From: Exobasidium rhododendri
Lineage: Eukaryota; Basidiomycota; Exobasidiomycetes; Exobasidiales; Exobasidiaceae
Reading direction: 5' to 3'
NCBI GenBank assembly: GCA_026210745.1
Contig: CP110632.1
Location: 4,091,001 to 4,155,000 of the forward strand
Length of the DNA: 64,000 nt
The position numbers and the translations under genes were made by a program. Every line of letters begins with the position of its first letter. Position 1 is the first letter of the stretch. The notes below the pieces were generated by a model. That model was not told where the DNA came from, did not search any database, and was given only the letters and a program-made list of their open reading frames with translations. Positions 54,022-56,013 of the stretch are shown piece by piece.

Positions 54022-54551
54022 TTAGCTCTTCGCTGCCAAGCTCTTTGTGACACTGTCGATGTACTGCTGCAGTGTGACGTTGTCTGCTTCCGCTTTGATG
54101 CACTCCTTTTGGACCGAAGTGACCCTGGCAATGAGGCCTTTTAGAGGATTGAAGAAGGAGCAGATAGCGCTGATCAATAAAAACATATCCGGAGACTTGA
54201 GGAAAATGCTTCGACTCACCTTTTAGCCCCTCCTGCATTGTCATGATATCCCTACGCAGAAGAGATATACCGGTCAGTCATAGGAGGTTAGTTCACTTCT
54301 TCTCAAGGAGCACACTTGTGTCAAAGACTCTGTAGTGCTCCAAGAGTAGTCCAGTCGAAGACTCACTTCACCAATCTCTGCTTCTCTACAATCTCACTTG
54401 CGCTCACTTCCGTCTGGACACTCCAAGCAACGCTATCTGTAAAGTCCCCCACCGAAGCTTCTGTGCCGGCAAAGGAAGGTGAGGCTATGCCGTCGCTCGC
54501 CATGACAGTAAAGTGAGTGACAGACCTAGCAATACGGAGGGCACAAGCCAT
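54022..54551 (-). CDS. Short coiled-coil protein, SCOC/Slo1-like
   Basis: Three exons (54367-54551, 54220-54251, 54022-54137) give 110 residues. The last exon begins LIARVTSVQKECIKAEADN and continues VTLQQYIDSVTKSLAAKS. Its heptad spacing and EADNVTLQQYI parallel the SCOC family (human SENQVLGQYIENLM), small Golgi coiled-coil proteins that bind Arl1/Arl3-type GTPases; yeast Slo1 is the Arl3 partner. The middle exon is only 32 nt (KDIMTMQEGLKG). ATG at 54551 is the first; an internal one at 54503 gives MASDGIASPSF and may be the true start. The 1.4-kb repeat-flanked element begins 37 bp upstream of the 54551 ATG, so the promoter must be in or across it. Confidence 0.72.
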
Positions 54552-54586: not shown

Positions 54587-54617
54587 TACCATGCGCTACT
54601 ACTATTAAATACACGTG
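54587..54617 (+). repeat. Left terminal inverted repeat (with TA)
   Basis: 31 bases, TACCATGCGCTACTACT and on to CACGTG at 54612-54617; exact reverse complement of 55983-56013. Confidence 0.95.
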
Positions 54618-56011
54618 GGTTTTTTGACCACTATTGAATACGCCGTGTACGACATGCTGTATCACCATGACTGGCCTCCCCATGTAAAATAGCAACTAAT
54701 GAAATAGAATTGTATGAAGATTCTGAACCAACTTGTCTGAAGCAAAAAGTGTAAAACATGCCGTTTTGAGTGAGCTGCTCTAAGTGTGAAATTTTATTAG
54801 GCCCTAAAAAACCAGTCAAAAAGTCCCGGGAACGCAAACACCATACACGGTGTATCGATGGCAATAACGGTACTACCATAACGTTGTTCAATGAGCTCGA
54901 GACTTTGATACAATGTAGAAAAGTACAGTATTATATATATGAGATGTGAAAAAAAATGAGACAATACATATGAAAGAGAGGAGATATAGAGGTATTGAGC
55001 CACTACGCCAGAAGGGTCAATACTACAAAAAAAGTCATGGTCACGGTACAGGATTTACGCGAATCTAGCTCTACTGCCTCCGCGCAAGAGCTGCAAGCTC
55101 CAGTAAGTTGAGTGGATCATTAGTAGTATCATATCTAGCACTCTATCCATTTAGAATGACCGTTTGTTCTCAATATGGGTGTGTCGGCACACATTTCTCA
55201 ACTTCACTTTAATTGACCCCCAAAAACAGACTCGACTTCAATTATCTCCTTCTTTTGTCACTACAATGTATTTTAGAACTTAGTAAATGTTTTAGCTGTG
55301 TATCAGAGCAATCTTACCTATCAATTTTATGCCTTGAAGTAGCCTGTAGATCACGCAAATGAGCTTCGTAGATGGAAAAATGGTCAAATTTGGGTCATTA
55401 TGGCAGTTTCACGGTCCTAAAATGACCCGATTTTGCTATCTTATCTGATAGACGTTGTGTTGAGTTCATACTCTACAGTTATGTCCGGAATTAGTAGGAA
55501 AAAGGATTCAATGCTTAAAAAGGACCAATTATTAATCATACTGACAAGTAAACAGCCTTTGTAGCTTTTCAAGGCCATTTTCAATGGTGTACCCGATCAG
55601 CATGATTCTGGAATCAATACACAATAAAATAAGTGTTTAACTTAATAGAAGTTGTTCATTACTATCTTCTATATCGTTTCCTGCTTTTAAATTTGTACAT
55701 TATTAATGAGAATATGCTACAAAGCAAGATACCGCTGACACCATGGTGCAAAATTTCTAAAAAATGATGGTGTAGTGCGTATTTCTCAGTGATAGCTTTT
55801 TGGACGCGCACAAAACCAACACACCATCTTCTCTTATAGGAAAACTTCATCAAATTCCATGAGAGCGTCTATTTTACATAGGGAGAGTGATCCGATAGGA
55901 GTGCATGGTCATGCCTGCGACGTCAGAGGGCGCAAATAGGGGCCAGGAGAGCGTCAATCGGGTGTTTTCACGTTCCCGAAATCACGTGTATTTAATAGTA
56001 GTAGCGCATGG
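54589..56011. mobile_element. TIR-flanked, AT-rich non-autonomous element (MITE-like or transposon relic)
   Basis: The left end (54589-54617) and right end (55983-56011) are perfect 29-bp inverted repeats starting CCATGCGCTACTACT and ending CACGTG. Both are flanked by TA (54587-54588 and 56012-56013), which would be a TA target-site duplication, making a 31-bp perfect inverted match in total. The 1.37 kb between is AT-richer than its surroundings (55201-55260 has 22 G/C in 60) and contains no frame above about 90 codons and no transposase motif that I can see. TA duplication is typical of Tc1/mariner-type elements, but the superfamily is not proven. It sits between the SCOC-like start and the 3' end of HOM3. 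Confidence 0.8.
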
Positions 56012-56013
56012 TA
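55983..56013 (-). repeat. Right terminal inverted repeat (with TA)
   Basis: Exact reverse complement of 54587-54617; begins CACGTG at 55983-55988 and ends GCGCATGGTA. Confidence 0.95.

What the first reader, a model, noticed from the sequence alone, without database searches (positions are those of the whole stretch)
54587..56013. Perfect-TIR, TA-flanked AT-rich insertion just upstream of the SCOC-like gene
Two exact 31-base inverted matches bound 1.37 kb of AT-rich DNA that contains no recognisable gene. The ends abut TA on both sides, as for a Tc1/mariner-type target duplication. Perfect repeat identity suggests recent movement or selection. Each repeat ends internally in the palindrome CACGTG. 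The left end lies 37 bp before the SCOC-like start codon, so the element would carry or displace that promoter. It may be a young non-autonomous family in this lineage or a relic with a lost transposase.
Basis: partly seen in the sequence, partly recalled or inferred. Interest (0 to 1): 0.75.

Follow-up and report, generated by a model that had tools for sequence, protein, structure and literature searches.

The report
Non-autonomous pogo-type jumping DNA family
The sequence is one of 27 related jumping-DNA copies in a plant-parasitic fungus; most lack their own mobility gene and are probably moved by the enzyme of a few longer relatives, which makes it a real but fairly ordinary mobile element.

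Summary
In detail: a perfect 31-bp inverted pair (TA plus a 29-bp repeat) bounds 1,427 bp of non-coding DNA, 35 bp upstream of the inferred start codon of a SCOC-like gene. It is not single-copy. The genome (by inference Exobasidium rhododendri CBS 101457) holds 23 copies of the 1.4-kb form (78-100% identical), two 655-bp deletion chimeras and two 2.9-kb relatives. All 27 sit between TA dinucleotides; two nested copies show one TA becoming two. The 2.9-kb copies encode a spliced transposase with HTH_psq, HTH_Tnp_Tc5 and a DD35D DDE_1 domain, the make-up published for Fot/Fot-like pogo elements; one frame is open, the other holds three stops. In the 1.4-kb form the transposase coding region is replaced by a ~741-bp AT-rich core found nowhere else in this genome. 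Best reading: a recently active non-autonomous pogo/Fot-type family moved in trans; ordinary in kind, no description found in the library searched. Less ordinary: one non-coding core is shared by three terminal-repeat lineages, is more alike than their ends, and holds a 23-bp stretch invariant in 23 of 23 copies. Its function is unknown.

The parts
54587..54588 (.). TA, left copy of the target-site duplication
   Evidence: 27 of 27 elements TA-flanked; one TA becomes two in both nested insertions
54589..54617 (+). left terminal inverted repeat, 29 bp, ending in CACGTG
54589..55018 (+). left end module, shared with the 2.9-kb coding copies (82% and 73% identical); there it lies 3' of the transposase stop codon
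55019..55759 (.). ~741-bp AT-rich non-coding core; the 23 genome matches are the 23 copies of the 1.4-kb form; takes the place of the transposase coding region
55430..55452 (.). 23-bp stretch invariant in 23 of 23 copies; contains CTATCTTATCTGATAG (55436-55451) with three WGATAR-like sites (GATA-factor consensus recalled, no binding shown)
   Evidence: 0 of 2000 column permutations reach a run of 23
55760..56011 (+). right end module, shared with the 2.9-kb copies (88% and 74%); there it lies 5' of the transposase start codon
55983..56011 (-). right terminal inverted repeat, 29 bp
56012..56013 (.). TA, right copy of the target-site duplication
54022..54551 (-). SCOC-like (DUF2205) gene whose inferred start codon lies 35 bp from the element (neighbour, not part of the element)

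Best explanation
54587-56013 is a non-autonomous DNA transposon of a pogo/Fot-type family in Exobasidium rhododendri. Transposase made by a 2.9-kb relative most likely recognises the shared ends, cuts the element out and inserts it at a TA, which is duplicated (TA duplication shown; trans-mobilisation inferred). The 1.4-kb form arose when the transposase coding region of a longer element was replaced by a non-coding core between its 3' and 5' untranslated parts (arrangement shown; the event, for example faulty gap repair with template switching, inferred). It then spread, and the copies have exchanged blocks with each other and with the coding relatives (mosaicism shown; mechanism inferred). 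This copy lies in the upstream region of the SCOC-like gene; an effect on its expression is possible but untested.
For: Own-genome search: 23 copies of the 1.4-kb form, two 655-bp and two 2.9-kb relatives on three contigs. 27 of 27 flanked by TA, outer flanks differ. Nested insertions in L019 and L011: TACCATGCGCTAC-TA-[element]-TA-CTATT against the intact TACCATGCGCTACTACTATT, so one TA becomes two. L030 carries a five-exon transposase of 582 aa, all four modelled introns GTGAGT...AG (introns 3 and 4 agree with the deposited fragment, introns 1 and 2 are my model), Pfam HTH_psq, HTH_Tnp_Tc5 and DDE_1 above curated cut-offs, D176/D294/D330 aligned in 5 of 5 proteins, 35 residues between the last two. 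The window copy shares only 1-432 and 1174-1427 with L030. Recent copying: C1:651616 and C1:508589 differ by one gap column and no substitution; C3:4015283 and C3:3160107 by 4 substitutions and 4 gap columns. C1_9936 (1.4 kb) has ends closest to the 2.9-kb L031 (94% left, 88% right) but the common core.
Against: No movement was observed. The commonest terminal-repeat type (17 of 27 elements, this one included, two sub-variants lumped) has no 2.9-kb copy with the same repeat in the assembly; the open transposase (L030) bears another repeat type, so cross-mobilisation or a lost partner has to be assumed. No empty site at this locus could be checked: no other strain is held. The 29-bp repeat is short for Fot.
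Confidence: 0.93

Rival explanations
1. The core is a selected cis-module (for example a transposition enhancer, or a regulatory insert with GATA-like sites), kept while the ends diverged, and not mere filler.
For: C1_9936 against the 22 other 1.4-kb copies: core 79-85% (mean 81.3), left end 72-83% (75.8), right end 56-71% (65.5); a 75-column window with 63 invariant columns and a 23-column invariant run are reached by 0 of 2000 permutations, a 40-column window with 34 by 14 of 2000.
Against: Block exchange between copies can homogenise the core without selection, and column permutation does not allow for it. No conserved RNA structure: window core z 0.44 and -0.88 on the two strands; 3 of 172 predicted pairs with both sides changed on the plus strand, 12 of 23 cores given. 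One Rfam match, far below its gathering score (15.2 against 100 bits). No shared reading frame. The 655-bp form lacks the core and lies in two places.
Confidence: 0.2
2. The 1.4-kb family is an independent transposon with its own, now lost, transposase that happens to resemble the 2.9-kb one at its ends.
For: The core shows no significant similarity to the 2.9-kb interior and the commonest repeat type has no coding partner.
Against: The shared ends run over 432 and 254 bp at 73-88% identity, far beyond the repeats, and C1_9936 matches the ends of L031 at 94% and 88%.
Confidence: 0.06
3. Domesticated promoter or insulator element maintained for host genes.
For: CACGTG ends 52 of 52 uninterrupted repeats; the window copy lies close to the SCOC-like start.
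Against: Near-identical copies at unrelated places and two self-insertions point to ordinary mobility; at least two copies abut frames open over the whole 950 bases examined (C1:508589, C1:1344166), so sites are not confined to promoters. No expression data.
Confidence: 0.03

Closest known systems
Fot/Fot-like family of the pogo superfamily (IS630-Tc1-mariner group)
   Same: HTH_psq + HTH_Tnp_Tc5 + DDE_1, DD35D, TA duplication (published for FotC/FotD and for 50 Fot-like elements) (PMC7386202: section 8 read in full; other passages)
   Different: The five database relatives found outside this genome are only 22-29% identical (a word-limited search that scored 7,991 candidates); most Fot elements have TAA duplications and most Fot/Fot-like repeats are 40-60 bp, here TA and 29 bp; not placed by a tree
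Fungal MITEs of the pogo/Tc1 group, e.g. mimp of Fusarium (search listing and abstract openings only; their features otherwise recalled)
   Same: Non-coding, terminal repeats shared with a coding relative, this copy upstream of a gene
   Different: 1.43 kb and 23 copies, larger and rarer than a typical MITE (recalled); interior not derived from the coding relatives found
Ds-like non-autonomous elements with unrelated interiors (recalled)
   Same: Ends of a coding element around foreign filler
   Different: Here one filler is shared by three terminal-repeat lineages

Membership tests
pogo superfamily, Fot/Fot-like | DDE_1 catalytic domain with DD35D spacing | tested here: met
   Pfam DDE_1 E 1.7e-13; D176, D294, D330 invariant among 5 aligned proteins, 35 residues between the last two; definition from PMC7386202 section 8
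pogo superfamily, Fot/Fot-like | HTH_psq and/or HTH_Tnp_Tc5 DNA-binding motifs | tested here: met
   both above curated cut-offs
pogo superfamily, Fot/Fot-like | TA (or TAA/TAAA) target-site duplication | tested here: met
   TA, 27 of 27 elements; direct empty/filled comparison twice
pogo superfamily, Fot/Fot-like | terminal inverted repeats: 40-60 bp in most Fot/Fot-like, 40 bp or less in most pogo families | tested here: inconclusive
   29 bp: within pogo, short for Fot
pogo superfamily, Fot/Fot-like | phylogenetic position of the transposase in the Fot clade | not tested
   no reference Fot transposases were fetched; five weak homologues found outside this genome
MITE | short (usually well under 1 kb, recalled), non-coding, terminal repeats of a coding element, high copy number | tested here: not met
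   non-coding and ends shared, but 1.43 kb and 23 copies; better called a non-autonomous derivative. The 655-bp form fits in size but has 2 copies
non-autonomous, trans-mobilised derivative | moved by the transposase of a coding relative | not testable with these tools
   needs an excision or binding assay

The most novel reading that the evidence does not exclude
A single non-coding core, sitting where a transposase gene was, has been handed between three terminal-repeat lineages of one pogo-type family and is kept by selection (it helps transposition or brings a GATA-like regulatory switch to insertion sites), so that the non-autonomous form is a modular parasite with exchangeable ends and not a simple deletion product.
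Probability: 0.15. Interest if true: 0.55.

Novelty: new member of a known kind. Interest (0 to 1): 0.33.

Why it matters
It adds a pogo/Fot-type family with coding and non-coding members, for which no description was found in the library searched, and a clear case of module exchange between copies. Near-identical copies and an open transposase frame suggest it could still be active, which would make it useful for telling strains apart and for studying how non-autonomous elements acquire unrelated interiors and cross terminal-repeat lineages. For the SCOC-like gene it offers a simple test of promoter replacement by a mobile element.

Tried and rejected
Gene in the interior: not supported. Frames are within shuffles in 22 of 23 cores, the exception is not shared; no Pfam match for ten frames of the window copy. 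A spliced gene without recognisable domains is not formally excluded. Structured RNA: not supported (12 of 23 cores given to the consensus fold). Core derived from the transposase interior or from elsewhere in the genome: no match besides the 23 copies at E 10 or better, none significant in the 2.9-kb copies. Target preference beyond TA: none obvious by eye in 54 flanks of 27 elements against window TAs (no statistical test). CpG loss in the window copy: not seen, observed/expected 0.84 against 0.83 in the window. Solved-structure relatives by sequence: none at E 0.01. A second protein search with a five-row alignment found no new relatives. A Pfam scan of the open frame beside C1:508589 gave no family. 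No structure prediction was made.

Printed record: no description of a transposon family in Exobasidium was found in the held PMC open-licence library (searches; for Ustilaginomycotina in general, 12 of 312 papers listed). PMC13010171 was seen in passages only: it masks repeats with RepeatModeler and cites the genome paper of E. rhododendri (Li, Liu and Wang 2023, Phytopathology), which is not held, so its repeat annotation is unknown to me. Subscription papers and repeat databases were not searched.

Full report
Observation. The 31-bp inverted pair at 54587-54617 and 55983-56013 is exact. Its first two bases are the TA of the target-site duplication, so the element's repeat is 29 bp. The element is 1,427 bp, GC 0.388, with a core at 0.366, beside 0.495 for window 1-54000.

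Host. The window is part of a 17.65-Mb, four-contig genome. The transposase of a 2.9-kb relative matches, at 99% over 56% of its length, the protein CBS101457_002273 of Exobasidium rhododendri, recorded on a contig of 7,127,044 bases, the length of contig C1. The host is therefore taken to be E. rhododendri CBS 101457 (Basidiomycota, Exobasidiales), by inference.

The family. A search of the own genome with the element gives 23 copies of the 1.4-kb form (77.6-100% identical to the window copy), two 655-bp copies and two 2.9-kb copies: 13 on C1, 5 on C2 and 9 on C3. The tool calls its counts lower bounds. The end pattern TACCATGC-N17-CACGTG occurs 52 times without mismatch, and all 52 are ends of these 27 elements; the two missing ends are those split by nested copies. 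With up to two mismatches there are 121 matches against 62 for the reversed control pattern, so the remaining 69 are about what chance gives; one of them is the end of a degenerate 568-bp copy at C1:1633736-1634303.

Target site. All 27 elements lie directly between TA and TA, and outer flanks differ. Two elements sit inside the terminal repeat of another: C1:4777367 in the left repeat of C1:4778794, and the 655-bp C2:2099817 in the right repeat of C2:2098400. Comparing the split repeat with the intact repeat at the other end of the same outer element shows one TA in the empty site and two around the insertion, a direct demonstration of the duplication.

The coding relatives. L030 (C1:5452022-5454935) and L031 (C3:1412725-1415622) are 77% identical. 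On the minus strand L030 holds a five-exon frame of 582 codons with introns of 63, 111, 165 and 82 nt, all beginning GTGAGT. Splice sites were chosen by eye; the deposited fragment agrees for introns 3 and 4 only. The protein has HTH_psq, HTH_Tnp_Tc5 and DDE_1 above Pfam's cut-offs and D176, D294, D330 aligned with four homologues. L031 has three in-frame TGA codons. A study of the pogo superfamily gives DD35D and HTH_psq and/or HTH_Tnp_Tc5 as the Fot/Fot-like make-up, and TA duplications in FotC, FotD and 50 Fot-like elements (PMC7386202, section 8 read in full; other passages). Relatives found outside this genome are distant: five proteins at 22-29% identity, none added by a second search.

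Short against long. The window copy shares 1-432 and 1174-1427 with L030, nearly the same stretches with L031, and nothing in between. In L030 the left shared part stops about 37 bp beyond the transposase stop codon and the right shared part begins about 21 bp before its start codon (positions). The coding region has thus been replaced by a core found only in the 23 short copies. The core shows no shared reading frame and no sign of conserved RNA structure. One copy, C3:1944767, has a 110-codon open frame that none of its 100 shuffles reaches; its nearest relative has 90 and most others 47-61, so I do not read it as a gene.

Mosaicism. Three terminal-repeat types exist: one, in two sub-variants, on 15 short copies and both 655-bp copies; one on 7 short copies and L030; one on C1_9936 and L031. 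C1_9936 has ends 94% and 88% like L031 but the common core. C3_3498626 has the repeat of the first group, a core closest to that group (92%) and a right end closest to the second group (94%). The 655-bp copies join 1-407 of one sub-lineage (96% to C1_508589) to a piece like 1181-1428 of another (96% to C3_3498626). Blocks have been exchanged. The core is more alike between C1_9936 and the 22 others (mean 81.3%) than either end (75.8% and 65.5%), and holds a 23-bp invariant run at 55430-55452 (0 of 2000 permutations). Homogenisation by exchange and selection are both possible; I favour exchange as the simpler.

Age. Closest pairs: 0 substitutions and one gap column (C1:651616, C1:508589), 4 substitutions and 4 gap columns (C3:4015283, C3:3160107), 19 substitutions for the window copy and C2:4384066. 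Movement is recent in part of the family; the copy most distant from the window's differs by about 22%.

Neighbour. The element lies 35 bp upstream of the inferred start codon of a SCOC-like gene (DUF2205), with a gene carrying an AA_kinase domain on its other side, also on the minus strand. It separates the gene from its former upstream sequence; whether expression changed is unknown.

Results against the reading. No coding copy with the window's repeat type is in the assembly. No movement or empty allele at this locus was seen. The Fot label rests on domains and spacing, not on a tree, and the 29-bp repeat is shorter than the 40-60 bp usual for Fot.

Verdict. A real, recently active (inferred), non-autonomous pogo/Fot-type family: a new member of a known kind, with an unusual shared core.

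Noticed in passing
L030:3892-3927 and L031:3882-3911: Intron 2 of the transposase (as modelled) holds a perfect palindrome in both 2.9-kb copies, 36 and 30 bp, with a paired G/C change between the two.
   Followed up: partly
L030 element positions 1143, 1563, 2660; window 55760-55772 (one-base variant): CGCCATCATTTTTT: 25 of 25 exact genome occurrences lie in this family. Allowing one mismatch, a 13-base version is found three times in each 2.9-kb copy (introns 3 and 4 and before the start codon), once in each of 23 1.4-kb copies at the right boundary of the core, and not in the two 655-bp copies. Could mark a recombination or binding site.
   Followed up: partly
L046:2588-2750 (C2:362087-362249): Isolated 163-bp piece 78% identical to the transposase exon 2 region of L030 with no other match to four family members in the 5.3 kb fetched.
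   Followed up: partly
L030 / protein CBS101457_002273: The deposited 364-aa protein covers only the later part of the transposase and starts in another frame, so the gene is probably mis-annotated.
   Followed up: no
L017:51-998 (C1:508589) and right flank of L024 (C1:1344166): These copies abut frames open over the whole 950 bases examined on one side, so they may lie in or next to genes; the first has no Pfam match, the second was not scanned.
   Followed up: partly
element position 43 (window about 54629-54641) and counterparts: The inner half of the left repeat (position 14) recurs at position 43, i.e. 29 bp further in, in 24 of 27 elements and at no right end (one mismatch allowed; absent from both type-three elements, whose repeats differ, and from C2:4899878). 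A possible second transposase-binding site on one side.
   Followed up: partly
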